A stretch of 64,000 bases of DNA, taken from contig JAIQFH010000001.1 of the NCBI GenBank assembly GCA_020073385.1, positions 124,001 through 188,000 of the forward strand, given 5' to 3'. The position numbers were made by a program, and so were the translations under genes. Below, piece after piece: positions 29,234 to 55,448 of the stretch. The notes under the pieces were generated by a model. It was not told the origin of the DNA. It searched no databases and saw nothing but the letters and a program-made list of their open reading frames with translations. How positions within the stretch are numbered: position 1 is the first letter of the stretch; every line of letters begins with the position of its first letter. This stretch comes from Terriglobia bacterium (GTDB lineage Bacteria > Acidobacteriota > Terriglobia > Terriglobales > Acidobacteriaceae).

Positions 29234-29253
29234 GGGAGATCTCCCTCAACCGC

Positions 29254-31469: not shown

Positions 31470-31510
31470 ATCGAGTGTTCGCGGAGAAGGATCCGCGAGA
31501 TCAACGCTGA

Positions 31511-35774: not shown

Positions 35775-38202
35775 CTACCGCTTCAGCGGCACTGAGGTGT
35801 ACCTGTTCGAGTTGATGGAGTTGATGCGGTCGAACGGCCATGAAGTGGCTTTGTTTTCGATGGCGGATGAACGCGGAGAGCCGACGCCTTATGACCGGCA
35901 CTTTGTGACACATATCGATTTAAAGGGGGAGTTGAGCTGGCCGCAAAAGGTGCGAGGCGCGGCCCACGTGATCTACTCGACCGAGGCGCGGCGGCGAATT
36001 CGGGCGATGATCCAAGAGTTCCGGCCCGATGTGGCGCATATACGCAGTATCTATCATCACCTGTCGCCGTCGATATTGTGGGAACTGCGGGCGCAAAACG
36101 TGCCAGTGCTTTACCACCTGAACGATTTCAAACTGCTGTGTCCCACCTACAACTTCGTGTCCGGTGGGCGCGCGTGCGAGATGTGCAAAGGAGGTTCTTT
36201 TTGGCAGGCGTTGCGGGCGCGCTGCTACCTCGGGGCGGCAGCACGCGCCACGTTAGTCGCAGAGGCTTACGTTCATCGCTGGTTGGGAACGTATCGTAAG
36301 TGTGTCGACCTGTTTCTAGCACCCAGCCGGTTCGTTCGTGACAAGTTTGTCGAGCATGGGTGGGATGCCGCGCACTTCGAAGTGCTGCCTCATTTTCAGG
36401 ACATTCACACCATCGTTGAGCCGCCGAACGATGGCCCCATCCTATACTTCGGCAGGTTGTCCGCAGAGAAGGGAATCGATGACCTGATTCGTGCAATGCA
36501 GCAACTGCCTCATATCTCCTTGGTGGTTGCAGGCGATGGCCCTGAGAAGAATGAACTCGAGCAACTGACCGCCAGTTTGCGTCTGACGAATGTGGAATTT
36601 GTAGGGTACCTTGGGGGTGAAGAACGAGACCGTCGTATCGCGGAATCGCGTTTCACTATCCTTCCGTCTCACGCATACGAGACGCTGGGGAAAACAATTC
36701 TGGAATCTTACGCCCATGGCAGGGCGGTCATTGCCTCGGATATTGGATCACGACGTGAGTTGATCCATGACAGGGAAACCGGATTGCTGTATCGCGTTGG
36801 AAGTGTCAATCAGCTTGCGGACGCGATTCAGTTGCTGGCTGCGAATCCCGAACTGACCAGGAAAATGGGGCGCGCGGGGTGGGAAATGGCTCGGTGCGAG
36901 CACACTCCTGAACAGAACTATCTGAAGCTCATGGGCCTGTATGACCGACTTCTTGCCGGAAAGTCCCGGAGATCGCGGGTGGCGCTTGCCCCCGCCGATG
37001 AAGCGCAGCCTAGGAAGCCGAGACTGCGAGTGGCCTTCATCGGCGGCCGCGGAGTGATCTCGAAATATAGCGGCATCGAGTCTTACTATGAGGAAGTGGG
37101 GAAGCACCTCGCGGCCATGGGGCATGAGGTGACGGTCTATTGCCGAAACCATTTCACGCCCAATCTGGCCGAACACAATGGCATGAAATTGGTGCGCCTG
37201 CCGACCGTGCGTTCGAAGCATCTGGAAACGGTGATTCACACTTCGCTCAGCACCCTTCATGCCCTGACGCGTCGGTATGACCTGGTGCATTATCACGCGT
37301 TGGGTCCGGCGCTGTTTTCGTTCCTGCCCCGACTATTGGGCGTCAAGACTGCGGTGACGGTCCAGGGACTCGATTGGCAACGGAGGAAGTGGGGATGGCT
37401 GGCATCGAAGGTTCTGCAACTCGGCGAGAAGGCGTCAGTATGTTTCCCCAATGGAACCATGATTGTTTCACGCGCACTGCAAATGCGATATCGAGAGCAG
37501 CACGGCGTCGAAACATTCTATGTGCCGAATGGTGGTGTGCTGCGCGAACGCAAGGAGCCGCGCGCCATTCTGGAAATGGGGTTGCAGCCCGCAGGTTACG
37601 TGCTGTACTTGGGAAGGTTCTCGCCGGAGAAGGGATGTCACCTGCTAGTCGAAGCCTTTGAACAACTCGAAACCAACGCCAAGCTGGTGTTGGCGGGCGG
37701 ATCGAGCTATTGCGATGAATACAGCCGCGAGCTGAGGACTCATGCCAGCGATCGAATCAGGATGCTGGAGTGGGTGTCGGGCGAAGCGCTTGCCGAATTG
37801 CTTACTAATGCCATGATTTTTGCGCTGCCTTCGGATCTGGAGGGGCTTTCGCTCGCACTGCTGGATGCTATGGGCGCGGGCTTGTGCGTTCTCACCAGCG
37901 ACGTTCCCGAAAACCGCGAAGTGGTAGACGGTGCGGGGTTTACTTTTCAGCGCGGAAACGCCGCGGATCTGGCAGATCGCTTGCGGTTCCTGATTGCCAA
38001 CCCAGCTGTTAGAGAGGCTGCCGGAAGGAGCGCCAGAAAGCGGATCGAGGATCACTACCAATGGCAGAAGATCGCCGAGGATATTGAGAGCGCATATTTT
38101 GAGATCCTTGGGAAAAAGCCGGCAACGGTACCGGACAAGAAACCAAGCAGCGCGGCAGCGATCTCCAGCGAGAATCCGTCGTTGCAGAGGCGCGCTGGAT
38201 AA
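35746..38202 (+). CDS. two tandem GT4 glycosyltransferases in one protein
   Basis: 818 residues holding two complete GT-B glycosyltransferases. Module 1 (about 1-400): FSGTEVYLFELMELM, YFGRLSAEKGIDDLI, VVAGDGPEKNELEQL, YETLGKTILESYAHGRAVIAS. Module 2 (about 425-800): FIGGRGVISKYSGIESYYEEVGKHL, HYHALGPALFSFLP, YLGRFSPEKGCHLLVEAF, EGLSLALLDAMGAGLCVLTSDVPEN. The opening of module 2 resembles DUF1972/rhamnosyl-type transferases. Start at 35746 is chosen because the GT fold begins there; GAGG lies upstream. It may add two consecutive sugars, possibly including rhamnose made by the next genes. An intrinsic terminator follows. Confidence 0.9.
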   Translation: MRVLFCNKYNYRFSGTEVYLFELMELMRSNGHEVALFSMADERGEPTPYDRHFVTHIDLKGELSWPQKVRGAAHVIYSTEARRRIRAMIQEFRPDVAHIRSIYHHLSPSILWELRAQNVPVLYHLNDFKLLCPTYNFVSGGRACEMCKGGSFWQALRARCYLGAAARATLVAEAYVHRWLGTYRKCVDLFLAPSRFVRDKFVEHGWDAAHFEVLPHFQDIHTIVEPPNDGPILYFGRLSAEKGIDDLIRAMQQLPHISLVVAGDGPEKNELEQLTASLRLTNVEFVGYLGGEERDRRIAESRFTILPSHAYETLGKTILESYAHGRAVIASDIGSRRELIHDRETGLLYRVGSVNQLADAIQLLAANPELTRKMGRAGWEMARCEHTPEQNYLKLMGLYDRLLAGKSRRSRVALAPADEAQPRKPRLRVAFIGGRGVISKYSGIESYYEEVGKHLAAMGHEVTVYCRNHFTPNLAEHNGMKLVRLPTVRSKHLETVIHTSLSTLHALTRRYDLVHYHALGPALFSFLPRLLGVKTAVTVQGLDWQRRKWGWLASKVLQLGEKASVCFPNGTMIVSRALQMRYREQHGVETFYVPNGGVLRERKEPRAILEMGLQPAGYVLYLGRFSPEKGCHLLVEAFEQLETNAKLVLAGGSSYCDEYSRELRTHASDRIRMLEWVSGEALAELLTNAMIFALPSDLEGLSLALLDAMGAGLCVLTSDVPENREVVDGAGFTFQRGNAADLADRLRFLIANPAVREAAGRSARKRIEDHYQWQKIAEDIESAYFEILGKKPATVPDKKPSSAAAISSENPSLQRRAG

Positions 38203-40952: not shown

Positions 40953-41789
40953 ATGAAAGCCATCATACTCGGTGCCACCGGACTGCTTGGTAAAGCGCTC
41001 GTGCGCGAATGGACTGGCGACGAAGTGCACGGCATGGGCTCGCGCGATGTGGACATCCGCGACTCAGCCAAAGTTCGCGAGATTGTCGAGAATGCTGGTC
41101 CAGATTGGATTGTATTGGCTGCCGCCTACACCGACGTCGATGGCTGTGAGAGTCATCGCGAACGGGCCTTTTCTGTGAACCGGGATGGAGCGGTCAATGT
41201 AGCAGAGTCCGCACGGCAATCGGGCGCCAGGCTGATATTTCTTAGTTCCGACTACGTGTTTGACGGGAAGAAGACCTCGCCCTACGAAGTCGACGATAAA
41301 CGGAATCCGCAGAGTGTTTACGGAGGCTCGAAGGCCGAGGCTGAGGTCAGATTGTTGGAGCTCTTGCCGAATTGCTGCATCGCACGAACTTCATGGGTCT
41401 TCGGAGTCGGCGGGAGGTGTTTTCCGGATACGATCCTTCGGCTGGCGGCGAGTCGCCCTGCGCTCGACGTCGTCAGTGATCAGCGAGGGTGTCCAACGTA
41501 TACCGTGGATCTGGCGCGAGCTATCATCCAGCTATGCCGAAAGAATGCCAGTGGCATCGTGCACGTGACCAACGCCGGTGATTGTTCGTGGTTTGAATTT
41601 GCGCAAGAGATCGTCACAGGGGCCGGGCTTGCAACTGAGGTGAGGGCGGTGAGCAGCCAGCAAATGGCGCGTCCGGCACCGCGTCCGGCGTATTCGGTTC
41701 TGTCGGCAACGAGCCTGCGCCGCTATGGCATCGAAATGCCCGGGTGGAAGGATGCGCTAGGTCGATATCTACTAGAGCGTGAGAGCTGA
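40953..41789 (+). CDS. rfbD: dTDP-4-dehydrorhamnose reductase
   Basis: 278 residues; last enzyme of the pathway, NADPH-dependent. Motifs: the NAD(P) loop IILGATGLLGKALV, the YTDVDGCESHRERAFSVN region, SSDYVFDGKKTSPYEVDD, the YGGSKAEAE segment holding the catalytic Tyr-Lys, and SWVFGVGG. A normal-length RmlD. The kynurenine operon begins 41 bp downstream, with no terminator seen in between. Confidence 0.95.
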   Translation: MKAIILGATGLLGKALVREWTGDEVHGMGSRDVDIRDSAKVREIVENAGPDWIVLAAAYTDVDGCESHRERAFSVNRDGAVNVAESARQSGARLIFLSSDYVFDGKKTSPYEVDDKRNPQSVYGGSKAEAEVRLLELLPNCCIARTSWVFGVGGRCFPDTILRLAASRPALDVVSDQRGCPTYTVDLARAIIQLCRKNASGIVHVTNAGDCSWFEFAQEIVTGAGLATEVRAVSSQQMARPAPRPAYSVLSATSLRRYGIEMPGWKDALGRYLLERES

Positions 41790-41830
41790 TTCCATCCGGC
41801 GATTGCTTCCGCTGATATGAGGCTGTTAGG

Positions 41831-43306
41831 ATGCCGCGGGGTTCGAACCACGTGAAGTTCATCCAGAACTACATTGATGGGAAGTTTGTCGCAGGCCAGC
41901 GTGAGTTCGCGGATGTGAACCCGGCGGACGGAAGCGTGATCGGGCAGGTCACCGAGGCGGATCGAGACGTGGTCGATCGCGCCGTACAAAGTGCACGTAA
42001 GGCTTTGGCAGGGGAGTGGGGCCGTGCAAGTGTGAGAGAACGCGCGGCTCGTTTGCGCAAAGTCGCCGACACGATCGAATCGCGCTTCGATTGTTTCGTG
42101 GCGGCAGAAGTCGCCGATACCGGGAAGCCCATTTCCCTGGCTGCAAGGCTTGATGTCCCCAGGGCTGCGGCGAACTTCCGGGCATTTGCCGATATGATCA
42201 GTACGTCCGGAATTGAGTCGTTCCAGACGGAAACCGCCGACGGCAAGAGCGCGCTGAACTACGCCGTCCGCAAGCCTTTGGGCGTGGTCGGAATCATCAC
42301 ACCCTGGAATCTTCCGCTCCTGCTGCTCACCTGGAAAGTGGCCCCAGCTCTGGCGTGCGGCAACGCCGTGGTGGTGAAGCCTTCGGAAGAAACTCCTGCG
42401 ACTGCAACCCTTCTTGCTGAAGTCATGGAAAGGACCGGAATGCCCGACGGCGTCTATAACGTGGTACATGGATTCGGTCCGAACTCGGCAGGCGAATTCC
42501 TCACACAGCATCCAGATGTGAATGCAGTGACTTTCACCGGCGAGTCGCAGACGGGCACCGCCATTATGAAAACAGTTGCCTCTTCCGTAAAGCCGATATC
42601 GTTTGAATTGGGCGGGAAGAATGCAGCCATCGTTTTCGCCGACTGTGATTTCGAGGATGCCACCGCTGGAATCGCCGACGCAGTCTTCCTTAATACCGGC
42701 CAGGTCTGCCTCTGCGCCGAGCGCGTCTACGTCGAGCGCGGAATTCTTGACCGATTCGTTAGCGCGCTCAAGCAGAGGGCTGAGGCGCTCCGCCTGGGAT
42801 CACCTTTAGATCCGGCCACCGAATTGGGCCCGCTGATTTCAAAGCAGCATCGCGAGAAAGTTGTTTCCTACTACTCGCTCGCTCGGGAAGAAGGTGCAAA
42901 TGTTGTGACCGGCGGTGGGATTCCCGAGTTCGGCAATTCTCTGGACAACGGATTCTACATTCAACCGACCATCTATACTGGCTTGGCTGAATCGGCTCGT
43001 TGTGTGAAAGAAGAGATATTCGGTCCGGTCTGCCATATCGCGCCGTTCGACACCGAGGACGAAGCAGTGAACATGGCTAACAATACCAAGTATGGTTTGG
43101 CGGCGTCGATATGGACCTCGAACCTGAAGCGCGGCCACCGAGTCGCACAACAGATGAATGCCGGGATCACGTGGGTGAACTGCTGGTTTCTTCGGGACCT
43201 GCGCACGCCCTTTGGCGGTATGGGACTGTCGGGAATTGGGCGCGAAGGGGGTATGCACTCGCTGAACTTTTATTCGGAACTGAACAACATCTGTATTAGG
43301 CTCTGA
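41831..43306 (+). CDS. nbaE: 2-aminomuconate 6-semialdehyde dehydrogenase
   Basis: 491 residues, ALDH superfamily; oxidises 2-aminomuconate semialdehyde to 2-aminomuconate with NAD+. Motifs: IITPWNLPLLLLTWKVAPAL (with the oxyanion Asn), FELGGKN (general base Glu) and NTGQVCLCAERVYV (catalytic Cys). The C-terminal WFLRDLRTPFGG carries the arginine that marks the 2-hydroxymuconate/2-aminomuconate semialdehyde subgroup and sets it apart from general ALDHs. Its place at the head of a kynurenine operon supports aminomuconate over hydroxymuconate. The start could also be a GTG 7 codons later. Confidence 0.9.
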   Translation: MPRGSNHVKFIQNYIDGKFVAGQREFADVNPADGSVIGQVTEADRDVVDRAVQSARKALAGEWGRASVRERAARLRKVADTIESRFDCFVAAEVADTGKPISLAARLDVPRAAANFRAFADMISTSGIESFQTETADGKSALNYAVRKPLGVVGIITPWNLPLLLLTWKVAPALACGNAVVVKPSEETPATATLLAEVMERTGMPDGVYNVVHGFGPNSAGEFLTQHPDVNAVTFTGESQTGTAIMKTVASSVKPISFELGGKNAAIVFADCDFEDATAGIADAVFLNTGQVCLCAERVYVERGILDRFVSALKQRAEALRLGSPLDPATELGPLISKQHREKVVSYYSLAREEGANVVTGGGIPEFGNSLDNGFYIQPTIYTGLAESARCVKEEIFGPVCHIAPFDTEDEAVNMANNTKYGLAASIWTSNLKRGHRVAQQMNAGITWVNCWFLRDLRTPFGGMGLSGIGREGGMHSLNFYSELNNICIRL

Positions 43307-43335
43307 ATCCGAATTGATGCCGGGCTGCAAATGCG

Positions 43336-43758
43336 ATGGGAAAGGTCGAAAGCAAAGTCGTGGAGGGGAAGGCGAACCCGCGGGGAAGGTATCCGCATGT
43401 TAAGCGCGCTGGAGATTTTCTGATCGTTTCGGGCACGAGTTCACGGCGCGCCGACAACAGTATTGCAGGAGCAGACGTGGATGGGATGGGAACGACCCAC
43501 CTCGACGTTCGTGTTCAGACCCGAGCAGTGATTGAGAACGTACGAGACATCCTGCGCTCGGCCGGGGCTGACCTTCGGGACGTTGTCGAAGTCACGTCGT
43601 ACCTGGTGAATATGAAGGATTTCGACGGATACAACGAAGTGTATGGCGAGTATTTCGACTACGACGGGCCAGCGCGCACTACCGTCGCGGTACATCAATT
43701 GCCTCATCCGCATCTGCTGATTGAAATCCGGGCGGTTGCTTACAAGCCTGAGAGATAG
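43336..43758 (+). CDS. nbaF: 2-aminomuconate deaminase (RidA superfamily)
   Basis: 140 residues, RidA/YjgF fold: [55 protein letters not shown] and the C-terminal [14 protein letters not shown], where Glu replaces the imine-binding Arg region wording of housekeeping RidA. The length, and the position between the dehydrogenase and the 3-hydroxyanthranilate dioxygenase, match the AmnD/NbaF 2-aminomuconate deaminases that release ammonia to give 4-oxalocrotonate. Without context it could be read as a generic RidA. Confidence 0.82.
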
Positions 43759-43765
43759 GAGCCCT

Positions 43766-44299
43766 ATGCCATCGATCAACGAATTGAAGGCGTTCAATTT
43801 TCAGCGCTGGATCGAGGACAACAAGGAGAAGCTGAAGCCACCGGTGGGCAACGCGCAAGTGTGGGAAGACGGCGACATGATGGTCACCGTCGTCGGAGGG
43901 CCGAACAACCGGCGCGATTATCACGACGATCCGACAGAAGAGTTCTTTTATCAGTTGAAGGGCGATATTTTCCTTCGCCTGATGGCGACGCCAGGCAAGC
44001 CGCCGCTCGAGGTTCCGATCAAAGAAGGAGAGGTATTCTTACTTCCAAAACACATGCGCCATTCGCCTCAACGCCTGCAGCCGGGAACCATTGGTGTTGT
44101 GGTCGAGATGCCGCGGCCGGAAGGAGCAATGGATGGGTTCGAATGGTACTGCCAGAACTGCCATCAGTTGTTGCATCGCGCCGAGGTCAAACTGAAAAGC
44201 ATTGTGCGCGATCTTCCTCCATTGTTTGAACAGTTCTACAGCAACGAAAACCTCCGCAAGTGCAAGCATTGCGGCGCGATTCATCCCGGCAAACAGTAG
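43766..44299 (+). CDS. nbaC: 3-hydroxyanthranilate 3,4-dioxygenase
   Basis: 177 residues; a cupin that opens 3-hydroxyanthranilate to 2-amino-3-carboxymuconate semialdehyde using Fe(II) and O2. The iron ligands are H53 and E59 (YHDDPTEEFFYQ) and H99 (RHSPQR). The bacterial C-terminal rubredoxin-like second metal site is present: C129/C132 (CQNC) and C166/C169 (CKHC). Start at 43766 behind AGGAG; it lies 7 bases after the deaminase stop. Confidence 0.95.
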   Translation: MPSINELKAFNFQRWIEDNKEKLKPPVGNAQVWEDGDMMVTVVGGPNNRRDYHDDPTEEFFYQLKGDIFLRLMATPGKPPLEVPIKEGEVFLLPKHMRHSPQRLQPGTIGVVVEMPRPEGAMDGFEWYCQNCHQLLHRAEVKLKSIVRDLPPLFEQFYSNENLRKCKHCGAIHPGKQ

Positions 44300-44301
44300 A
44301 A

Positions 44302-46161
44302 ATGTCCGTCATCGACATTCACAATCACTTTTTTCCCCGCACCTGGCCGGACTTGGCAGCGCGCTATGGGACGCCTAACTGGCCATGGATCAAACATACC
44401 GAAGCCGGCCAAGCCGACATCATGATTGGCGACCGCTTCTTCCGTCACATCTACTCCGCGTGCTGGGACCCACAAAAGCGTCTTGAGGAGATGGATCGGG
44501 ATGGAGTTGAACTCCAGGTTCTCTCGGCGACTCCGGTTTTGTTTGCGTATGATCGGCCCGTTGAACATGCACTCGATTGCGTGCAGTTGTTTAACGACGC
44601 GGCACTGGAACTATGTGCTCAAGGAAAGGGAAGGCTGAAGGCCCTGTGCCAGGTGCCTTTGCAGGATGTGGACGCTGCGTGCAAAGAGTTGAGCCGGTGC
44701 ATGGGAGCTGGGCACTTAGGCGTGCAAATAGGCAATCACATCGGAGAGAAAAACCTCGATGATCCCGGCATCGTGACCTTCCTGCACCACTGTGCCGATG
44801 AGAACGCGGCCGTGCTGGTGCATCCCTGGGATATGTTTGGCCAGTCCCGGATGCCGAAATACATGATGCCCTGGACAGTGGGCATGCCAGCCGAGACACA
44901 ACTTGGCATCGTTGCGATGATTCTGGGGGGTGCATTCGACAAGCTACCGCGAAGTCTTCGAATCTGTTTTGCGCATGGGGGCGGGAGTTTTGCGTTCCTT
45001 CTGGGACGGTTGCAGAATGCATGGCAACATCACCCCGTAGCACACGGCGTGTGTGAGTTGGCTCCCAAGGATTACTTGGATCGGTTCTACGTCGATTCGG
45101 CCGTGTTTGACAGCCGAGCCTTGAAGTACCTGGTGGAGATGATGGGTGCCGAGCGGGTGATGCTGGGCTCCGATTATCCGTTCCCGCTGGGTGAGCATCG
45201 TGTGGGAGAATTGATTCACTCCAGCGATTTACCGTTGCGCACAAAATCCCGCCTGTTGGGTGAAAATGCGGAGGAATTTCTTAAGCTCCACCGAAATGCA
45301 GCTATCAAGAGTGCGCAGACAGGTAAGCCTCCGGAGCCAGCTTCCCAAGAAAGCCATCAGCTAACCTACAGTTCCTATCTGCGAGTTCCCGAACTGCTGC
45401 AGCTGCAACACCCGCAATCGCGGCCGCAGCATCATGACGAGTTGCTCTTCATCATCGTGCACCAGACGTACGAGTTGTGGTTCAAAGAACTGCTGCATGA
45501 CCTGGATGCGGTTGTCGCGAATCTTCAGGATGCGGGCAAGAATCCCGAATCACGCGACGAGGTCTATGAGGCGGCCCGCCTGCTGCGGCGCTGCACCGAG
45601 ATTACGCGGGTGCTGGTGGAACAGTTCACGATTCTGGAAACCATGCTGCCGACGCATTTTCTGGCCTTTCGCGGAAAACTCGAACCGGCCAGCGGGTTCC
45701 AGTCGGAGCAGTTTCGAGAACTCGAATTTCTGTGCGGATTGAAAGATGAAAAGATGCTGCGCTATCACCGGCCAACGCCGGAAGCTCACGCACTGCTCGA
45801 GCGGCGTTTGAAGGAGCCTTCTCTGCACGATGCCTTCTTCGAAGCGCTACGTGCTATGGGGAAGCTGCAGATCGACAAGAATGCAGGTGAACGCGAGCAG
45901 TTCGATGCACGGGCCAGGGCCGTACTCTCGTTGTATCGAGACGAGCACAGCAATCGGGATTGGATTGACGTCTGCGAACGGCTCACGGAGTTCGATGAGC
46001 TCGTTGTAGGTTGGAGACTGCGCCACATTCAGCTCGTAGAGCGGGTGATTGGCACGCGCATGGGAACCGGTGGAAGCGCGGGTTCGTCATATCTGAAACT
46101 CACACTGGACAAGAAGTTCTTTCCGGAGTTGTGGGAAGCACGTACGCTGCTTACGGAATAA
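44302..46161 (+). CDS. nbaD-kynA: fused ACMS decarboxylase and tryptophan 2,3-dioxygenase
   Basis: 619 residues, two enzymes in one frame. Residues 1-335 are 2-amino-3-carboxymuconate-6-semialdehyde decarboxylase (amidohydrolase fold), with zinc ligands H7 and H9 (DIHNHFFP), H174 (VLVHPWDMFG) and D291 (GSDYPFPLGE). After a linker of about 15-20 residues rich in Pro/Ser/Gln, residues 352-619 are tryptophan 2,3-dioxygenase: LTYSSYLRVPELLQLQHP, the HHDELLFIIVHQTYELWFKELLHDL region with the distal His, ASGFQSEQFRELE, and H575 (WRLRHIQLVERVIG) as proximal haem ligand. Both halves are full length with all key residues, so both should be active. Starts 3 bases after the dioxygenase stop. Confidence 0.95.
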   Translation: MSVIDIHNHFFPRTWPDLAARYGTPNWPWIKHTEAGQADIMIGDRFFRHIYSACWDPQKRLEEMDRDGVELQVLSATPVLFAYDRPVEHALDCVQLFNDAALELCAQGKGRLKALCQVPLQDVDAACKELSRCMGAGHLGVQIGNHIGEKNLDDPGIVTFLHHCADENAAVLVHPWDMFGQSRMPKYMMPWTVGMPAETQLGIVAMILGGAFDKLPRSLRICFAHGGGSFAFLLGRLQNAWQHHPVAHGVCELAPKDYLDRFYVDSAVFDSRALKYLVEMMGAERVMLGSDYPFPLGEHRVGELIHSSDLPLRTKSRLLGENAEEFLKLHRNAAIKSAQTGKPPEPASQESHQLTYSSYLRVPELLQLQHPQSRPQHHDELLFIIVHQTYELWFKELLHDLDAVVANLQDAGKNPESRDEVYEAARLLRRCTEITRVLVEQFTILETMLPTHFLAFRGKLEPASGFQSEQFRELEFLCGLKDEKMLRYHRPTPEAHALLERRLKEPSLHDAFFEALRAMGKLQIDKNAGEREQFDARARAVLSLYRDEHSNRDWIDVCERLTEFDELVVGWRLRHIQLVERVIGTRMGTGGSAGSSYLKLTLDKKFFPELWEARTLLTE

Positions 46162-46179
46162 TCTCCTCGACCTTCTCCG

Positions 46180-47544
46180 ATGAGTCAGAAGAACGGAATG
46201 ATCACGTTGATTGGCGCCGGGCTCACCGGGCCGCTACTCGCACTTGAGTTGGTCAAGCGTGGCTTCCAGGTAGAGATTTACGAAAGACGTGCGGACATGC
46301 GGCGTGTACACATGAGCGCAGGCCGATCGATCAACCTGGCTTTGTCAGCGCGAGGCATTCATGCGCTCAAACAAGCGGGTTTGTGGGACGATATGCAGAA
46401 GATCGTCATCCCGATGAAGGGCAGGATGATGCATTCTGCCGCGTCGGAGATAACATTCCAGCCGTACGGCAGGAATGAGTCCGAAGTGATCAACTCCATC
46501 TCGCGTGCTGATCTGAACATTGCGCTCATGAACGCCGCCGAGGAGCGGGGAGTCAAGGTCCACCTTCAAATGCGTTGCACTGGAATCGATCTAAGCAGGA
46601 ACATTCTCCAGTTGCGCGACGAGGAAACGGGCGAGAAGCATTCGGCAGCCGCTGGTGTGGTGATAGGTTGCGATGGATCGGCATCGGAGATTCGCGGCGA
46701 GATGTTGAAGCGAAGTCGCTTTAATTTCTCGCAACAGTATCTCGATTACGGCTACAAAGAACTCACAATTCCGGCGGTTTGCGGCGGCAGGCATGCTTTG
46801 GAGACGAACGCCTTGCACATTTGGCCGCGCGGCAACTACATGCTGATCGCGCTTCCAAATGTCGATGGTACCTTCGCCTGCATTCTCTTTCTGCCCTCCG
46901 GAGGAAGGGACAGTTTCGAGCAGTTGTCCACACGAGCTGCAGTGCTTGAGTTCTTTCAATCGCGGTTCCCTGACGCAGTTCCACTGATGCCGGATCTCGC
47001 GGACAACTTCTTTGCGAATCCGGTTGGATCCATGGTCACGATTCGATGCTCGCCGTGGCATTTCGAAGGAAAGGCCCTACTGCTGGGGGACGCCGCGCAC
47101 GCGATCGTTCCGTTCTTCGGACAGGGAATTAACTGTGGATTCGAAGATTGCACGGTTCTGTTGGAGTTGCTGGACCGGCATGGCGCGGATTGGAACAAGG
47201 TATTCAGTGGGTTTGAGCGCGCACGCAAAGAGAACACAGATGCTATCGCCGATTTGGCTATCGAGAACTTCGTTGAAATGCGGGACCGCGTCGGCGATGC
47301 ACGTTTTCTCTTCCGAAAGAAAGTGGAATTGGCATTACAAGAAAAGTATCCGCAGCGTTTTGTACCCAAGTACGCAATGGTGACGTTCCTCCGCGTGCCG
47401 TACGCCACGGCGCTGAAGCGAGGCCAGGTGCAGGATCGAATGCTCACGGAACTCTGCGAGCACATTGACCGCGTGGAAGACCTCGATTGGAAAAAGGCAG
47501 AAAGACTCGTCTACAGCGAACTGAGTCCGCTGGAGCTGCCGTGA
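46180..47544 (+). CDS. kmo: kynurenine 3-monooxygenase
   Basis: 454 residues, an FAD-dependent group A hydroxylase; makes 3-hydroxykynurenine using NADPH and O2. FAD loop LIGAGLTGPLLALELVKRGFQVEIYERR; KMO-specific GRSINLALSARGIHALKQAGL; second FAD motif LLGDAAHAIVPFFGQGINCGFEDC. The C-terminal region (VPYATALKRGQVQD) is the helical extension seen in KMO. It starts 18 bases after the fusion gene and overlaps the kynureninase start. Confidence 0.95.
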   Translation: MSQKNGMITLIGAGLTGPLLALELVKRGFQVEIYERRADMRRVHMSAGRSINLALSARGIHALKQAGLWDDMQKIVIPMKGRMMHSAASEITFQPYGRNESEVINSISRADLNIALMNAAEERGVKVHLQMRCTGIDLSRNILQLRDEETGEKHSAAAGVVIGCDGSASEIRGEMLKRSRFNFSQQYLDYGYKELTIPAVCGGRHALETNALHIWPRGNYMLIALPNVDGTFACILFLPSGGRDSFEQLSTRAAVLEFFQSRFPDAVPLMPDLADNFFANPVGSMVTIRCSPWHFEGKALLLGDAAHAIVPFFGQGINCGFEDCTVLLELLDRHGADWNKVFSGFERARKENTDAIADLAIENFVEMRDRVGDARFLFRKKVELALQEKYPQRFVPKYAMVTFLRVPYATALKRGQVQDRMLTELCEHIDRVEDLDWKKAERLVYSELSPLELP

Positions 47545-48812
47545 GTGTTCCAGCGTTCCAACTCGGCGAGCAATATCCGGCGGCGATGGATGCCCACGAC
47601 CCTTTAGCTCATTTTCGCGGGCGCTTTCACATCCCGAAGACGACGAGCGGCGAAGAGTGCATCTATCTTTGCGGGCATTCGCTGGGGCTCCAACCCAAGT
47701 CGGCGACAACATATCTGGAGCAGGAACTGAAGGATTGGGCCGGACTTGGCGTCGAGGGACACTTCCACGCCAAAAATCCGTGGATGCTCTATCACAAGCT
47801 TTTGACAGAGCAGACCGCCACTCTGGTTGGTGCAGAGCCAGTCGAAGTGGTGGTGATGAATTCGTTGACGGTAAATCTGCATTTGATGATGGCATCGTTC
47901 TACCGCCCGACTCCGAAAAGGCACAAGATTCTGATCGAGCGAGGAGCTTTCCCATCGGATCAATACGCGGTGAAGTCGCAGATTCTCTTCCACAACTACG
48001 AACCTTCTACATCGCTCATTGAGCTGACTCCTCGAGAGGGCGAATCCTGCATCCGGGACGAGGACATCCAATCGCTGATCGACCGGGAAGGCAAATCGAT
48101 TGCTCTCATTCTTCTCGGCGGAGTTAATTATGCGACGGGACAGTATTTCAACATCCCGGAAATTGCGAGAGCTGGGCATCGCAAGGGATGTATCGTTGCT
48201 TGTGATCTCGCCCACGCGGTTGGCAATGTCCCTTTACACTTGCACGACTGGGGGCCAGACTTCGCGGTATGGTGCAGCTACAAGTATCTGAATGGCGGCC
48301 CCGGTTGCGTTGCGGGATGCTTCGTGCATGAGCGCCACTCCCGTGCGTGGGATGTGCCGCGCTACGCCGGGTGGTGGGGGCATGATGACCGAACCCGATT
48401 TGAAATGGGACCTGACTTCAACCCCATGACCGGAGCGGAAGGGTGGCAATTGAGCAATCCACCAATCATGGCTCTTGCCCCACTGCGTGCCGCAATGGAG
48501 ATCTTCGCCGAGGCTGGAATGGAACACTTGCGCCAGAAAAGCCTCTTGCTGACGGGCTACATGGAGTTCCTTCTGCGAGAGAAGGCCTCAGCGAAGTTCT
48601 CGGTTATTACTCCAAGCGATCCGGAGCGGAGGGGGGCGCAGTTGTCGATTCGTCTACCGGCGGGGCGCGGTCTTTGTGACAGGTTTCTAACCGAGGGTGT
48701 GATCGGCGACTGGCGCGAGCCGGATACCTATCGAGTTGCAGCCGTCCCTCTATACAATTCATTTCGAGACGTTTACCGGTTTGTGCAACGTTTTTCAGCA
48801 GCTCTTTCGTAA
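47541..48812 (+). CDS. kynU: kynureninase
   Basis: About 423 residues, a PLP enzyme that splits 3-hydroxykynurenine to 3-hydroxyanthranilate and alanine. Motifs: YLCGHSLGLQPKSA, VEVVVMNSLTVNLHLMMASFY, ACDLAHAVGNVPLHLHDWGPDFAVWCSYKYLNGGPG (Asp for the PLP nitrogen and the Schiff-base Lys in YKYLN), and the WWGHDDRTRFEM substrate loop. It starts with GTG at 47541, overlapping the monooxygenase stop (GTGA), so translation is coupled. Last gene of the operon. Confidence 0.95.
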   Translation: MSVPAFQLGEQYPAAMDAHDPLAHFRGRFHIPKTTSGEECIYLCGHSLGLQPKSATTYLEQELKDWAGLGVEGHFHAKNPWMLYHKLLTEQTATLVGAEPVEVVVMNSLTVNLHLMMASFYRPTPKRHKILIERGAFPSDQYAVKSQILFHNYEPSTSLIELTPREGESCIRDEDIQSLIDREGKSIALILLGGVNYATGQYFNIPEIARAGHRKGCIVACDLAHAVGNVPLHLHDWGPDFAVWCSYKYLNGGPGCVAGCFVHERHSRAWDVPRYAGWWGHDDRTRFEMGPDFNPMTGAEGWQLSNPPIMALAPLRAAMEIFAEAGMEHLRQKSLLLTGYMEFLLREKASAKFSVITPSDPERRGAQLSIRLPAGRGLCDRFLTEGVIGDWREPDTYRVAAVPLYNSFRDVYRFVQRFSAALS

Positions 48813-48894
48813 CGAAATTCCCCACCTCAGTCTTAGGGTCGTCTGGTTACCTTGGTACTCCTTTACTTTTTCCTTACAAACATACAATTCATGC

Positions 48895-50733
48895 GTGGGG
48901 AGTTTTGCGCTCAAAAGCGGGCGGAAGTGGACCGTTGCCATCTGCACACTTGTGTGTGTGCATGTTGCGTTATCGCTGGTTGTACCTCGCAGCTTTGTCC
49001 TGACCGCATTTGGAGACATTCTCCAGAACGTCGTTCTGCTTCTCGCGACAGTTGCGTTCCTTTGGAATGTCAAGACAACATCCGGCAAGACACGCCTGTT
49101 CTGGTTGTTGATGGGCATGGGCTTGACGATTTGGCTGGCATCGCAACTGGCGTGGACGTATTTCGAAGTGTACCTCGGGCATGAAGCGCCCAATCCCTTT
49201 GCCGGTGACGTAATTCTCTTCTTGCATGTTGTGCCCATGATGGCGGCGGTTGCGATTCAACCGCACCAGAGGCAAGAGGATCATGCGATCCGCGCCAGGA
49301 CGCTCGATTTTGCTCTGCTCCTGACCTGGTGGTTGTTTCTCTATCTATTTGTGGTAATTCCCTGGCAATACGTGCAACTCTCGGAACCGGCGTACGGCAA
49401 GAGCTTCGATCTGCTCTACTTCAGCGAAGAACTTGTGCTGGCCGCGGGGTTGCTCCTCGTACGCCGCCGCAGCCGTGGTGCCTGGCGCAGCATTTATCTC
49501 CAGTTATTCGGCGCGACGTTGCTTTATTGCGGCGCTTCGCTACTGGCCAGCGAAGCCATTGACCTGCATGCTTACTACACAGGAAGTTTGTATGACGTGC
49601 CGCTAGTTGCTTCCATGGCCTGGTTTGTTCGGATTGGTTTCCTTCCTGTGTCGGCGGACTCTCAGGATTTGTCGGAGGAGTCGCCGGTGCGCGGCTTCGG
49701 CATCTGGAAGGCTCGTCTCGCCATGGTCGCGGTGTTCGTCACTCCTCTGATGGTGGCTTGGGCGGAGTTTGCCGGCGATGCGCCGCATCGGGTCCGCACC
49801 TACCGGCTTTTTCTGACTGTGGCAGTCATGCTCATCATGGGTGTGCTGGTGTTTCTGAAGCAGCACCTGCTCGACCAGGAGTTGCTCACCCTGTTGCGAT
49901 CATCGCGGCAGAATCTTGACGAAATGCGCCTCCTGAAAGACGAGTTGGAGAACAAAGAGCAGTCCCTGCGGTGGCACAGCCTGGAGCTGCAGCGAAAAAA
50001 CCTCGAGCTGCAGGAAATTTCCTTTACCGATGTGCTGACCGGAGTATGGAACCGGCGCTATATGGAAGAGATTCTGACCGCTGAGGCCGGACAGGTATTG
50101 CGGAACTACCAGCGGGCACGCGGAAATGACATTCGCAAGATGGACCACCGCGATCTGGTTTTCATCATGGTCGACATGGATTTCTTCAAGGAAGTGAATG
50201 ACATATATGGACATCCGGCCGGCGACCGTTTGTTACAGCTTGTGGCGCAAAGGCTCTTGACGGTCGTGCGCAAATCCGATGTGCTGGTGCGCTGGGGCGG
50301 GGAAGAATTTCTGATCATGACTCGCTCGACAGATCCTTCAGGCACGCCAGCTTTTTGTAGTCGTATTCTGGAAGTGATTTCGGCGGAGCCTTTCGATCTT
50401 AGCTACGGAATCACTGTGCGGAAGACATGTTCCGTAGGATGGGCCGCGTATCCATGGTGCCGTCGGGCGTATGAAGCGGTTTGCGCCGAAGAATCGATCG
50501 AACTCGCGGATGCCGCCTTATACCGGGCCAAGGCTCTTGGCCGAAATCGGGGAGTCGGCTTCGTAGCCACCGACGCCGCGGGCCAGAATCCGGACGAAAT
50601 CAATCTGCGATCATTGCGCCAGGTGAAGTCTTCTTTCGTGCTGGCCATCGAAACGCCGTGTCCGACCGATGTCAACGCGACGGTCGCTCCGCCGCTCACT
50701 TCGGCCCACGCCGCAAACAAAATCGACGGGTAG
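48895..50733 (+). CDS. membrane diguanylate cyclase (GGDEF)
   Basis: About 612 residues. Eight or so membrane helices fill the first 330 residues, followed by a short coiled coil (LLKDELENKEQSLRWHSLELQRKNLELQE). A GGDEF domain comes next: SFTDVLTGVWNRRYMEE, then VDMDFFKEVNDIYGHPAGD, then RWGGEEFLIM. The active-site GGEEF is intact, and an RxxD inhibitory site (RKSD) lies five residues before it, so it should make c-di-GMP with product control. The start is uncertain: the first plausible codon after kynureninase is GTG at 48895, without a clear Shine-Dalgarno. Its product could act on the PilZ proteins in the window. Confidence 0.88.
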   Translation: MGSFALKSGRKWTVAICTLVCVHVALSLVVPRSFVLTAFGDILQNVVLLLATVAFLWNVKTTSGKTRLFWLLMGMGLTIWLASQLAWTYFEVYLGHEAPNPFAGDVILFLHVVPMMAAVAIQPHQRQEDHAIRARTLDFALLLTWWLFLYLFVVIPWQYVQLSEPAYGKSFDLLYFSEELVLAAGLLLVRRRSRGAWRSIYLQLFGATLLYCGASLLASEAIDLHAYYTGSLYDVPLVASMAWFVRIGFLPVSADSQDLSEESPVRGFGIWKARLAMVAVFVTPLMVAWAEFAGDAPHRVRTYRLFLTVAVMLIMGVLVFLKQHLLDQELLTLLRSSRQNLDEMRLLKDELENKEQSLRWHSLELQRKNLELQEISFTDVLTGVWNRRYMEEILTAEAGQVLRNYQRARGNDIRKMDHRDLVFIMVDMDFFKEVNDIYGHPAGDRLLQLVAQRLLTVVRKSDVLVRWGGEEFLIMTRSTDPSGTPAFCSRILEVISAEPFDLSYGITVRKTCSVGWAAYPWCRRAYEAVCAEESIELADAALYRAKALGRNRGVGFVATDAAGQNPDEINLRSLRQVKSSFVLAIETPCPTDVNATVAPPLTSAHAANKIDG

Positions 50734-51458: not shown

Positions 51459-52964
51459 TCACGCGATTCGTGTGCAGACCGCCTTGGTTTGCGTGTATAG
51501 ATTGAGCACATCGTGCCCCATCTCGCGTCCCCATCCGGACTGCTTGTAACCTCCGAACGGGAGTGCAGCATCGAAGATGTTGTAGCAGTTAATCCACACG
51601 GTTCCGGCGCGAAGTTGTTCCGCCACACGATGCGCCTTGCCGATGTCGCGCGTCCAAACTGCGGCTGCCAGGCCGTAATCGCTGTCGTTCGCGCGCGGGA
51701 TGATTTCTTCGGGATCGGTGAACGGCATCGCCGCAACCACCGGGCCGAAGATTTCTTCCTGGACGACTTTCATATCCTCGTTCGCGTTGACCAAGACCGT
51801 GGGCTCAACGAAATATCCGCGGTCACTGGCCTTGTGGCCTCCAACGACCGCCTTCGCGCCTTCAGAGAAGCCCGATTCGAGGTATCCGCAGACGCGATTC
51901 AGTTGTTCTTCGGAGACCAGCGGCCCCATCTGCGTTTCCGGCTCAAGCCCCGCTCCAACTTTAATCTTCTTCGCGTAATCGGCGACGCCTTCGACAACAC
52001 GATCGTAGACCGATTTCTCCACGTAGAGGCGAGATCCAGCGCAGCAACACTGGCCGTGATTGAAGAAGATTGCACTCGCAGAGCCGGGAATCGCGGCTTC
52101 GAGATCGGCATCTTTGAAGACGACGTTCGGAGATTTGCCACCGAGTTCCAGGGATACTTTTTTCAGATTGCCGGCGGCGGCGTGGACGATTAACTTGCCA
52201 ACCTCCGTGGAACCGGTGAACGCGACTTTGTCGATGTCAGGATGCGCGGCCAGCGCAGCTCCGGCGGTTTCGCCGTAACCCGGAACAATATTGACGACAC
52301 CCTCCGGGAAACCAGCTTCGGCAATCAATTCGCCGAGACGGAGCGCCGAAAGCGGTGTCTGCTCTGCCGGCTTTAGCACAACCGTGCAGCCGGTCGCGAG
52401 CGCGGGGCCAAGTTTCCAAGCAGCCATCAGAAGCGGGAAGTTCCATGGAATGATCTGGCCGACGACACCGACCGGCTCCCGCAGTGTGTATGCCAGATAC
52501 TTCGCGCCCGGAGTGTAGGGCACGGATAAAGGGATTGTGTTGCCTTCGACCTTCGTCGCCCATCCCGCCATGTAACGGAGCAGATCGACAGCCAGCGGTA
52601 CGTCAGCCGCCTTCGCAATGGTGAGCGGCTTACCATTGTCCAGGCTCTCCAGATATCCGAATTCCTCGGTGTGTTGCTCCAGCAGGTCCGCCAGTTTCCA
52701 GATCAGGCGTCCCCGCTCGGAGGCCGTCATTCTGCGCCACGGACCACTGTCGAACGCTTGCCGCGCGGCTCTCACGGCGCGTTCAATGTCCTCGCGGTCG
52801 CCTTCTGCAATCTGCGCGAGAATCTCGCCGGTTGCTGGATTGTAGGTTGGAAATGTCTTGCCGGACGCGGCGTTTACCCACTGTCCGTTGATTAACATCT
52901 TTCGTGGTTTGTCGATGAACTCGGCTACTTGTGGATGAATTTGCGCGGAGACGGCTATGCCCAT
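51459..52964 (-). CDS. NAD-dependent aldehyde dehydrogenase
   Basis: 501 residues, ALDH1/2-like. Motifs: [41 protein letters not shown] (base Glu), [16 protein letters not shown] (catalytic Cys), and a C-terminal [15 protein letters not shown]. Start at 52964, preceded by AGGAGG. Third gene of a deoC-ALDH16-ALDH unit. DeoC releases acetaldehyde, so oxidation to acetate is a reasonable role; substrate choice cannot be read from the sequence. Confidence 0.93.
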
Positions 52965-53066
52965 AGGTCCTCCTTGGTCAACATGGACTTGCAGAGAGAA
53001 TGATTCCGGGCGAATGAAAACTCCGGGTATGCTAGTCCCGAACCGGTGGAAAAGCAACCGGGCGAT

Positions 53067-55448
53067 CTACTCACCGTAGGGGACCCAGATGTTTTTGACC
53101 TGGGTGGCGTGCGCGAGAAACCAGCGTCCCTCAGCAACCCCCGAATCGAACCAATCGATGGTGCGGCCTTCGTTGGTCCAGACCTGCTTCAAGTTTCCGG
53201 TGGACATCGCCTTAGCGGATGCGACTGTAGCATCGTCGCCGTAACACCAGATGGCGTCGACATCATCATGTTCCGCGAGCGGTTTAAGCAACTGTGAGAC
53301 ATATCCGGTCACAATGTTCACCACGCCTCCGGGCAGATCGCTGGTATCGAAGAGTTGATAGAGATCGGCGGCGATTAGGGGATATTTCTCAGACGGTATA
53401 GCGATCACCGTGTTTCCTACCGCAATCAGCGGCATCACCAGCGAAAGGAATCCTAACAGCGGTGTCTCCGAAGGGCAGATGACGCCTATCGTACCGATGG
53501 GTTCGTTCATCGCGATGGCAATGTTGCGGAACGGCGGGTTGTGAACCGCACCGTCGAACTTATCGGCCCATGCCGCATACGAGAAAATGCGCTCGATTGC
53601 TAATGCGACTTCCCGCTTCGCCTGTTGCTCTCCTACGGCAGCAGCAAGTCGCGACGCAATTTCGTCCCGCCGAACGGCGAGATTCTCCGCGCAGTAATAG
53701 AGGACCTGTGCGCGATTGTGAGCCGTTGCCTTCGTCCAGCTTTCCGCCTTGCGGGCTGCCTCGACGGCATTCCGAATGTCTTTGCGATTTCCTAAAGACG
53801 CCTCGCCCAGCAGTGTTCCATCGGGCGAATGCACTTCCATGCTATAGCCGGAATCGGGTCGCGCCTGCTTGCCGCCAATATAGAGCTTAATGGTTCGGTC
53901 GATCGAGGGAGTGTCAGAGCCCGCAGGATCTTGCGATCGCGGAACTGGTGCGGACGCTGCGGCCAACTTGGGTGCGCGCTTGAACCATGTTGGCTCCATG
54001 TATTCGAGGAGGCCCTCGCGTCCGCCTTCGCGACCGTAGCCGCTTTCGCGATATCCGCCAAAACCACAGGCGGCATCGAACAGGTTCGTGCAGTTCACCC
54101 AGACGACGCCGGCTTTCAATTGTGCCGCGACATGCAGAGCGACATTGATATTTTCGCTCCAGATGCACGAGGCCAGTCCATACACCGTATTGTTCGCCAG
54201 TTCTACAGCCTCTTTCGGCGTGCGGAACGTCATTGCAGCGAGCACCGGGCCGAAAATCTCCTGCTGAGCGACGATCGACGTAGGATGAACATTACTCAAA
54301 ATTGTCGGTGGAAAGTAAAATCCGCGCGAAGGCAGTGTGACTTGCGGCTGCCAACAGGTTGCGCCCTCCGCCACTCCTTGGGCTACCATGCGCTGGATTC
54401 TTTCCAGTTGCACGCGCGCCACGATGGCTCCAATATCAATCGCCTTATCGAGCGGGGGACCGATCCGCAGCGTGTTCATGCGGTCGCGGATTTTTGAGAT
54501 GAGCACTTCCGCGATACTTTCCTGCATCAGCAGGCGAGATCCTGCGCAGCAGACCTGGCCCTGGTTGAACCAGATTCCATCCACCAATCCTTCAACGGCG
54601 CCATCGAGATCGGCATCATCGAAAACGATGAAAGGCGACTTCCCGCCGAGTTCAAGAGAGAGACGCTTATGGCTGGCAGCCGTGGCTCCGCGAATCGCGC
54701 GTCCTACTTCGGTTGAACCGGTAAACGCGATCTTGTCGATCTCCGGATGCTTGACGAGCGATTCTCCCGTTAGTCCATCGCCCGTCACAATGTTGACAAC
54801 CCCTGCGGGAATACCGGCTTCCTGGCAGAGGCCGGCGAATGCGAGAGCCGTAAGAGGCGTGAACTCGGCGGGTTTCAGCACCACGGTATTTCCGGTGGCG
54901 AGCGCAGGCGCAATTTTCCACGCCAACATGAGAAGCGGGAAGTTCCAGGGAATGATCTGACCGACGACTCCGCAGGGTTCGTGATCAGGGAATTCCTGAT
55001 CGAGCAATTGAGCCCAGCCTGCATGATAGTAAAAATGTCGCGCGACCAAAGGGATGTCGATATCGCGGCTCTCGCGAATGGGCTTGCCATTGTCCATGGT
55101 CTCGAGAACGGCAAGAAGCCGCGAATGCTTCTGGACAAGACGCGCGAGATTGTAGAGGTAACGGGAGCGAACGTGGGCCGTGAGCGCACGCCATTTTGGA
55201 AAAGCAGCGCGCCCCGCACGAACGGCGGCATCAATGTCTGCTGCACTGCCTTGCGCGACGGTCGCCAGCTTTTCACCGCTTGATGGATCGAGTGTGTCGA
55301 AATACTCTCCCGCTTCGGGTGCCAGCCATTGCCCATCAATAAAGTGATTGAACTTGCGAGTGTGGCGCTCCAGCCAGGCTTGCGCCTCCTTGGGATCTTC
55401 AGGCGCCGGCCCATACTCCATGCTGACAAACTTTTCTGCAATGCTCAT
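53067..55448 (-). CDS. two-domain aldehyde dehydrogenase, ALDH16 type
   Basis: 793 residues. Domain 1 (about 30-490) is a complete [58 protein letters not shown] with the catalytic Cys, and FGGYRESGYGREGG. Domain 2 (about 515-793) repeats the ALDH cofactor part (LYIGGKQARPDSGYS, IGVICPSETPLLGFLSLVMPLIAVGNTVI, VVNIVTGY) but has no catalytic Cys motif and stops early, so it is a structural pseudo-domain. This is the layout of the ALDH16 family. It is the middle gene of the deoC unit, 38 bp from deoC, so a nucleoside-derived aldehyde is a likely substrate (inference). Confidence 0.92.
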   Translation of the reverse strand: MSIAEKFVSMEYGPAPEDPKEAQAWLERHTRKFNHFIDGQWLAPEAGEYFDTLDPSSGEKLATVAQGSAADIDAAVRAGRAAFPKWRALTAHVRSRYLYNLARLVQKHSRLLAVLETMDNGKPIRESRDIDIPLVARHFYYHAGWAQLLDQEFPDHEPCGVVGQIIPWNFPLLMLAWKIAPALATGNTVVLKPAEFTPLTALAFAGLCQEAGIPAGVVNIVTGDGLTGESLVKHPEIDKIAFTGSTEVGRAIRGATAASHKRLSLELGGKSPFIVFDDADLDGAVEGLVDGIWFNQGQVCCAGSRLLMQESIAEVLISKIRDRMNTLRIGPPLDKAIDIGAIVARVQLERIQRMVAQGVAEGATCWQPQVTLPSRGFYFPPTILSNVHPTSIVAQQEIFGPVLAAMTFRTPKEAVELANNTVYGLASCIWSENINVALHVAAQLKAGVVWVNCTNLFDAACGFGGYRESGYGREGGREGLLEYMEPTWFKRAPKLAAASAPVPRSQDPAGSDTPSIDRTIKLYIGGKQARPDSGYSMEVHSPDGTLLGEASLGNRKDIRNAVEAARKAESWTKATAHNRAQVLYYCAENLAVRRDEIASRLAAAVGEQQAKREVALAIERIFSYAAWADKFDGAVHNPPFRNIAIAMNEPIGTIGVICPSETPLLGFLSLVMPLIAVGNTVIAIPSEKYPLIAADLYQLFDTSDLPGGVVNIVTGYVSQLLKPLAEHDDVDAIWCYGDDATVASAKAMSTGNLKQVWTNEGRTIDWFDSGVAEGRWFLAHATQVKNIWVPYGE

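What the first reader, a model, noticed from the sequence alone, without database searches (positions are those of the whole stretch)
44302..46161. One protein carrying both the first enzyme (TDO) and a late enzyme (ACMSD) of the kynurenine pathway
The frame is uninterrupted for 619 residues. All zinc ligands of the decarboxylase (H7, H9, H174, D291) and the haem and substrate residues of tryptophan 2,3-dioxygenase are in place, so both halves look active. The two normally are separate proteins and catalyse non-consecutive steps, so the fusion is not simple channelling between neighbours. It could fix 1:1 stoichiometry, tie the tetrameric TDO to an ACMSD dimer, or tie the start of the pathway to removal of the unstable ACMS intermediate, which would otherwise cyclise to quinolinate.
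Basis: partly seen in the sequence, partly recalled or inferred. Interest (0 to 1): 0.78.

Follow-up and report, generated by a model that had tools for sequence, protein, structure and literature searches.

The report
Fused tryptophan-entry and NAD-branch enzyme
In a lineage of soil Acidobacteriota one protein carries two predicted enzymes of tryptophan breakdown, the one that starts the pathway and the one at the fork between full breakdown and NAD synthesis, and the join, found in many relatives, likely fixes how much of the flow is left over for making NAD.

Summary
Confirmed: window 44302-46161 (+) is one 619-residue frame with an ACMSD domain (4-329) and a TDO domain (351-616), tested catalytic residues present, in a six-gene kynurenine operon. 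The fusion is widespread: both domains in 120 of 120 listed clusters, full length in 29 of 37 same-genus genomes, and in at least four genera of two families. Linkers are 8-52 residues, hypervariable and predicted disordered. Some database copies look split near the junction, by indel or fission, unresolved. Trees fit one origin. New: the host and 34 of 36 congeners lack quinolinate synthase NadA; the two with NadA lack the fusion; NadC, which uses quinolinate, is kept in most. So the operon likely supplies quinolinate for NAD as well as burning tryptophan, and ACMSD is the drain at that fork. I propose that the TDO tetramer holds ACMSD as active dimers and fixes the entry:drain ratio. Activity, assembly and control are untested. 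Known enzymes, new arrangement, testable control idea.

The parts
44302..45288 (+). ACMSD domain of the fusion (residues 1-329), zinc-dependent ACMS decarboxylase
   Evidence: Pfam PF04909; best PDB match P. fluorescens ACMSD 2hbv, 402.9 bits; model aligns to 4ifk with TM 0.95 over the target, 52% identity
45289..45354 (+). inter-domain linker (about residues 330-351), predicted disordered, no in-frame ATG/GTG/TTG
   Evidence: pLDDT under 50 at residues 332-357; conservation 0.26 against 0.83 and 0.88 in the domains; start-codon scan
45355..46161 (+). TDO domain (residues 352-619 and stop), haem tryptophan 2,3-dioxygenase
   Evidence: Pfam PF03301; best PDB match X. campestris TDO 2nw7, 185.1 bits
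41831..43306 (+). 2-aminomuconate semialdehyde dehydrogenase (AMSDH) candidate
   Evidence: TIGR03216 868 bits, cut-off 693 (a 2-hydroxymuconic semialdehyde dehydrogenase model); position in operon
43336..43758 (+). RidA-family protein, likely 2-aminomuconate deaminase
   Evidence: PF01042; no NCBIfam cut-off met; assignment inferred from the operon
43766..44299 (+). 3-hydroxyanthranilate 3,4-dioxygenase (HAAO), makes ACMS
   Evidence: NF009763 263 bits, cut-off 220; TIGR03037 234 bits, cut-off 146
46180..47544 (+). kynurenine 3-monooxygenase (KMO) candidate
   Evidence: PF01494; no NCBIfam cut-off reached among the rows shown, best VioC 199 bits; assignment from operon
47547..48812 (+). kynureninase (KYNU)
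   Evidence: TIGR01814 453 bits, cut-off 246

Best explanation
The single 619-residue chain carries the domains of the enzyme that opens the kynurenine pathway (TDO) and of the enzyme that drains its fork metabolite ACMS (ACMSD), and it likely works as a fixed-ratio device that steadies how much ACMS is left to cyclise to quinolinate for NAD. Shown: the fusion, its intact catalytic residues, its spread, the operon, and the absence of NadA with retention of NadC. Inferred: (1) TDO forms a homotetramer as in its relatives, so four ACMSD copies are held within linker reach and pair into the dimers that ACMSD needs for activity at any cell concentration. (2) Entry capacity and drain capacity rise and fall together, so over a wide range of expression the ACMS level and the quinolinate flux level off instead of rising with tryptophan breakdown. 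(3) The leftover quinolinate enters NAD through NadC, since NadA is missing.
For: Fusion and residues; invariant in 42-43 of 43 distinct fused sequences (one row, L068, is cut by its contig end). Linkers vary from 8 to 52 residues while the flanks are conserved (these loci were picked for having both halves in one frame). Two confident domains with a floppy joint (mean pLDDT 86.1, pTM 0.56). Own genome: NadA 0 hits while 12 of 14 control genomes ring; NadC present, TIGR00078 299.5 bits against cut-off 198.4. Genus, 37 genomes: fusion with NadA 0, fusion without NadA 32 (29 full length, 3 in pieces), NadA without fusion 2, neither 3 (Fisher p 0.015); HAAO in the same 32 of 37; NadC in 30 of those 32 and in 12 of 12 of good quality. 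Class, 399 genomes: NadA in 2 of 13 genomes with the fusion (one of the 13 partial) against 340 of 386 others. ACMSD monomer inactive, dimer active, tetramer more so, and no known regulation explains steady quinolinate (PMC10143591, passages read). Raised ACMSD makes mice niacin-dependent (PMC9805792, abstract). A toy steady-state model with arbitrary constants shows the levelling-off.
Against: No activity, kinetics or assembly data. Two fused genomes (G276, G375) also have NadA, so the fusion does not depend on NadA loss. A NadB-like gene just under its cut-off (446.7 of 452.75 bits) remains in the own genome, and hits over 400 bits occur in 15 of 32 fused congeners, own genome included. Three congeners have neither route. 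Some database copies look split near the junction, so the join may not be essential. No formamidase was assigned. Fisher tests ignore shared ancestry. Whether separate-gene operons also go with NadA loss was not tested. Two genes in one operon would give the same average ratio; the fusion only removes noise and adds tethering. The model needs TDO turnover below ACMSD turnover and works less well near equality.
Confidence: 0.42

Rival explanations
1. The fusion is a bystander of operon life: a stop codon between two neighbouring genes was lost once, both enzymes kept working, and the join is inherited without a special benefit beyond co-expression.
For: The linker is hypervariable and predicted disordered; trees fit one origin and vertical inheritance; the steps are not consecutive, so no direct channel; some database copies look split near the junction.
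Against: The open junction is kept through 43 distinct linkers in at least four genera of two families; of 32 same-genus genomes with the gene, none shows a break in the linker that could be read (G031 unreadable); the joined enzymes are the pathway's entry and its fork.
Confidence: 0.38
2. The fusion is a scaffold for a larger enzyme assembly: ACMSD recruits HAAO and AMSDH while TDO recruits KMO and kynureninase, so that unstable intermediates pass between enzymes.
For: A transient HAAO-ACMSD-AMSDH complex was proposed for this pathway (PMC10143591, passages read); the genes sit in one operon of conserved order.
Against: No contact evidence; the linker shows no motif shared by most of the 43 sequences.
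Confidence: 0.12
3. The frame is translated or processed into two separate enzymes, by an internal start or by cutting of the floppy linker.
For: The linker is predicted disordered and could be cut; some relatives look split there.
Against: The window has no in-frame ATG, GTG or TTG from the linker to 12 codons into TDO, and the 43 relatives share no conserved internal start.
Confidence: 0.06
4. Sequencing or assembly artefact that hides a stop and start at the junction.
For: Most relatives are metagenome assemblies, and some copies differ in frame.
Against: The joint architecture occurs in 120 of 120 listed clusters, full length in 29 of 37 congeners and in a single-contig 5,650,368-base genome.
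Confidence: 0.02

Closest known systems
ACMSD of Pseudomonas fluorescens (PDB 2hbv, 4ifk)
   Same: Whole domain, zinc ligands, and arginines 51 and 239 needed across the dimer; 52% identity, TM 0.95 over the target
   Different: Stand-alone protein; here a linker and a TDO follow at its C-terminus
Tryptophan 2,3-dioxygenase of Xanthomonas campestris (PDB 2nw7, 7p46)
   Same: Whole domain with haem and substrate residues
   Different: Stand-alone; Y113 is F here; the fusion scores below NCBI's TIGR03036 cut-off; here preceded by ACMSD
Stand-alone TDOs of Acidobacteriota f83, Nitrospira and a Deltaproteobacterium (L026-L030, L135-L137)
   Same: 70-76% identical to the fused TDO, branching just outside the fused group
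   Different: Not fused; the three f83 genomes show no second match to the fusion at E 1e-45 or better
Separate kynurenine operons of other Acidobacteriota, Planctomycetota and Bacteroidota (L034, L044, L051, L056, L163-L175)
   Same: Same enzymes; HAAO before ACMSD in most
   Different: ACMSD and TDO are separate genes, with KYNU and/or KMO between them or TDO elsewhere
Tryptophan-to-quinolinate NAD synthesis of some bacteria (PMC4217691, passages found)
   Same: Kynurenine enzymes up to HAAO occur in bacteria as a NAD route
   Different: The passages seen mention no ACMSD-TDO fusion; here a drain (ACMSD) sits in the same operon and chain

Membership tests
ACMSD | Amidohydro_2 domain (PF04909) over its cut-off | tested here: met
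   113.8 bits against 26.4
ACMSD | Zinc ligands and catalytic histidine (Pf H9, H11, H177, H228, D294; numbering by offset) | tested here: met
   H7, H9, H174, H225, D291; kept in 42-43 of 43 fused sequences
ACMSD | Arginines 51 and 239 that complete the site across the dimer | tested here: met
   R48 and R236; role from the title of 4ifk and PMC10143591
ACMSD | Decarboxylates ACMS; dimer | not testable with these tools
   Needs purified protein
TDO | Trp_dioxygenase domain (PF03301) over its cut-off | tested here: met
   195 bits against 34.9
TDO | Haem histidine and substrate residues (Xc H240, H55, R117, T254, F51) | tested here: met
   H575, H387, R457, T589, F383, invariant in 43 of 43; residue roles recalled; Xc Y113 is F in 43 of 43
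TDO equivalog TIGR03036 | Whole-protein score over NCBI's cut-off | tested here: not met
   241.8 bits against 390.7; so filed under PF03301, not under TIGR03036
TDO | Homotetramer with haem | not testable with these tools
   Only monomer modelling was done
Kynurenine-dependent de novo NAD synthesis | Enzymes from tryptophan to ACMS present | tested here: inconclusive
   TDO, KYNU and HAAO found, KMO likely; the only Cyclase-family hit scores 28.7 against the arylformamidase cut-off 223; other formamidase families not searched
Kynurenine-dependent de novo NAD synthesis | NadC present, NadA absent | tested here: met
   a NadB-like gene remains

The most novel reading that the evidence does not exclude
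A single protein hard-wires a metabolic fork: by fixing one drain enzyme per entry enzyme and by using the TDO tetramer to keep ACMSD in its active pairing, it clamps the unstable metabolite ACMS so that NAD supply stays steady however hard tryptophan is burned. In this lineage it let the cell lose quinolinate synthase and take its NAD from tryptophan.
Probability: 0.28. Interest if true: 0.8.

Novelty: new variant of a known kind. Interest (0 to 1): 0.6.

Why it matters
How the kynurenine pathway keeps spontaneous quinolinate formation steady when tryptophan varies is stated as an open puzzle (PMC10143591, passages read). A natural protein that ties the first enzyme to the fork enzyme gives a clean system: express it fused and split, and ask whether the ACMS split ratio changes. 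The mutual exclusion with NadA inside one genus also points to bacteria whose NAD likely comes from tryptophan while they also burn it. Where one search shows a database name, it mentions only one of the two halves.

Tried and rejected
KMO-TDO or KYNU-KMO-TDO fusions: several other Acidobacteriota have TDO inside open frames of 507-1125 aa. Reading ten of them (G523, G547, G563, G570, G605, G722, G728, G720, G741, G658) showed no second pathway enzyme in the same frame, so these are chance open frames. Internal translation start: none conserved. Linker Cys-Pro motif: GCP occurs in 7 of 43 distinct linkers (L021, L032, L112-L116), none from the window's genus, and in 4 of 170 junction-bearing database proteins of 240 held by a strict pattern (P0226, outside that pattern, also has it). 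It looks like a haem-regulatory motif (recalled) but is absent in the window, so not used. One-clade test on TDO with the label 'fused' was rejected (p 2e-9), but the two 'separate' rows inside are L024 (frame break) and L031 (contig edge), so I read this as a labelling effect; I did not rerun it with labels changed. L109 does the same in the ACMSD tree, where the test did not reject (p 0.196). Dedicated kynurenine formamidase: one weak Cyclase-family candidate, unlinked. Literature: ten searches; I saw listings and the passages or abstracts named, and none showed an ACMSD-TDO fusion. The library lacks most subscription journals.

Full report
What is there. The frame 44302-46161 on the + strand encodes 619 residues without interruption. 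Residues 4-329 match Amidohydro_2 and residues 351-616 match tryptophan 2,3-dioxygenase. Against solved structures the first half is closest to ACMSD of P. fluorescens (402.9 bits) and the second to TDO of X. campestris (185.1 bits). The zinc-site residues (H7, H9, H174, H225, D291), the two arginines needed across the ACMSD dimer (R48, R236) and the TDO haem and substrate residues (F383, H387, R457, H575, T589) are present and invariant across the 43 distinct fused sequences compared; one row is cut short at its contig end. The predicted structure has two confident domains and a stretch of very low confidence at 332-357 between them; the ACMSD part aligns to 4ifk with TM 0.95 over the target, and the TDO part matches 7p46 with a looser fit (TM 0.77 over the target, rmsd 8.2).

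Surroundings. The gene lies in a co-directional operon: AMSDH candidate, RidA-type protein, HAAO, the fusion, KMO candidate, KYNU. HAAO makes ACMS, ACMSD removes it, AMSDH and the RidA protein would carry on. Before the operon lie genes that read by eye like sugar-nucleotide enzymes and after it a GGDEF protein. No sigma-70-like promoter was found on the + strand of 41500-49000, which says little for this phylum.

Distribution. In a protein search all 120 listed clusters (of 4167 hits) have both Pfam domains. In the genus of the window, 37 genomes were examined: 29 carry a full-length fusion, 3 carry it in pieces (G015, G022, G031) and 5 have none. In 399 genomes of the class, 12 carry both halves in one open frame (10 as one match; G183 and G336 as two pieces of one frame) and G319 shows the TDO part at a contig edge. 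They fall in genera g1, g32 and g43 of one family and g68 of another. Among 396 genomes of the phylum only the window's genome and G014 showed the fusion; the listed matches of the others were separate halves, and that list was cut. Among 79 loci of named genomes 25 are fused (one, L068, cut by the contig end), with titles such as Candidatus Sulfotelmatobacter, Acidobacteriaceae and Bryobacterales. The gene order is the same in the fused loci as far as the sequence held extends. In the other loci read the two enzymes are separate genes, or only one of them is in the stretch.

Split copies. Of 120 proteins listed for the ACMSD half, 68 lack the exact TDO motif searched for. Many of these simply stop inside the linker or early TDO, as at a contig end, and a few hold a variant of the motif. 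Some on long contigs (P0136, P0138, P0141, P0200) end in tails that read, by eye, like an out-of-frame junction. P0124 and P0149 go out of frame just inside TDO. TDO-only P0309 (169-kb contig) and P0314 (1.05-Mb contig) start in the linker region. Assembly indels and real fission cannot be told apart with what I had.

Origin. In the ACMSD tree the fused sequences form one group with full support, with only the frame-broken L109 added. In the TDO tree they group together (87/47 including L023, 90/95 without it) next to stand-alone TDOs that are 70-76% identical; the two unfused rows inside are a frame-broken copy and a contig-edge fragment. One fusion event from neighbouring genes is the simplest reading; support for the deepest fused node is weak. 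The nearest ACMSD-only protein that bears a name from a source is one from Azospirillum at 70%.

The linker. Lengths run from 8 to 52 residues (median 24), rich in A, S, P, E and T, with conservation 0.26 against 0.83 and 0.88 in the two domains. These loci were picked because both halves share a frame, so openness itself is not an independent test there; the genus survey is, with no readable break in the linker among 31 genomes and two breaks elsewhere in the gene. There is no conserved internal start, and none in the window from the linker to 12 codons into TDO.

NAD context. The own genome (estimated 100% complete) has no NadA (the same search rings in 12 of 14 control genomes) but has NadC over its cut-off. 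Across the 37 genus genomes, NadA occurs in G011 and G029 only, and these two have neither the fusion nor HAAO. No genome has both; 32 have the fusion gene only; G001, G006 and G020 have neither. NadC is in 30 of the 32, one of them a partial hit (G009). In the class sample, NadA is in 342 of 399; among the 13 with the fusion (one partial) it is in two, G276 and G375. The six fused g68 genomes (G319 partial) lack NadA while twelve other g68 genomes have it; g68 genomes with neither would not be listed, so this is not a full table. Several of these six are incomplete (73-95%). Against this: a NadB-like protein just below its cut-off remains in the own genome, and hits over 400 bits occur in 15 of 32 fused congeners. 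The formamidase is not identified.

How it may work. ACMS cyclises on its own to quinolinate, and ACMSD competes with that. ACMSD is inactive as a monomer and active as dimer or higher, and no known regulation explains why quinolinate stays steady when tryptophan varies (PMC10143591, passages read). Raising ACMSD in mice makes them depend on niacin (PMC9805792, abstract). If TDO is a tetramer as in its relatives (recalled), the fusion brings four ACMSD chains together and sets one drain site per entry site. In a toy steady-state model with arbitrary constants and TDO turnover at 0.1 of ACMSD, raising the fusion from 1 to 100 units changed ACMS 1.24-fold (0.895 to 1.11), while raising TDO alone changed it about 500-fold (0.895 to 451). 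At 0.9 the figures were about 5-fold and 300-fold. Below 1 unit the fused level still fell with expression. The levelling-off depends on a fixed ratio, which a plain operon also gives on average; the fusion makes it exact and adds the tether. These are inferences.

Verdict. It is a real, widespread bifunctional architecture of known enzymes, so a new variant of a known kind. The added finding is its mutual exclusion with NadA inside the genus, which turns the question from removal of a by-product to control of a fork. I saw no paper describing it in the searches named in Tried and rejected.

Noticed in passing
window 53067-55448 (-): A 793-aa ORF with two aldehyde dehydrogenase stretches in one frame, next to another aldehyde dehydrogenase-like ORF at 51459-53057 (read by eye): possibly a second fusion or tandem duplication in the same neighbourhood.
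   Followed up: no
window 35542-38202 (+): An 886-aa frame that reads by eye like two glycosyltransferases in tandem, downstream of polysaccharide export, chain-length and sugar-transferase genes at 28448-33127.
   Followed up: no
L021, L032, L112-L116, linker region: Fused proteins of g32, g43 and g68 keep a GCP (Cys-Pro) motif in an otherwise hypervariable linker just before the haem enzyme (7 of 43 distinct linkers); it is absent in the linkers of the window's genus.
   Followed up: partly
G000 contig C100:82866-84338 (L199): A NadB-like L-aspartate oxidase (446.8 bits, cut-off 452.75) is kept although NadA is absent; it sits beside aroB, so its role is unclear.
   Followed up: partly
G000 contig C84:48248-48778 (L193): The only Cyclase-family match of the genome scores far below the kynurenine formamidase cut-off (28.7 of 223), so step 2 of the pathway has no assigned gene.
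   Followed up: partly
G001 and G006 (same genus): No NadA, no HAAO and no NadC was found: possible loss of de novo NAD synthesis, or incomplete or contaminated assemblies.
   Followed up: no
database proteins P0136, P0138, P0141, P0200, P0309, P0314: Copies of the fusion that look split near the junction, on contigs of 13 kb to 1.05 Mb; assembly indel or real fission not resolved.
   Followed up: partly
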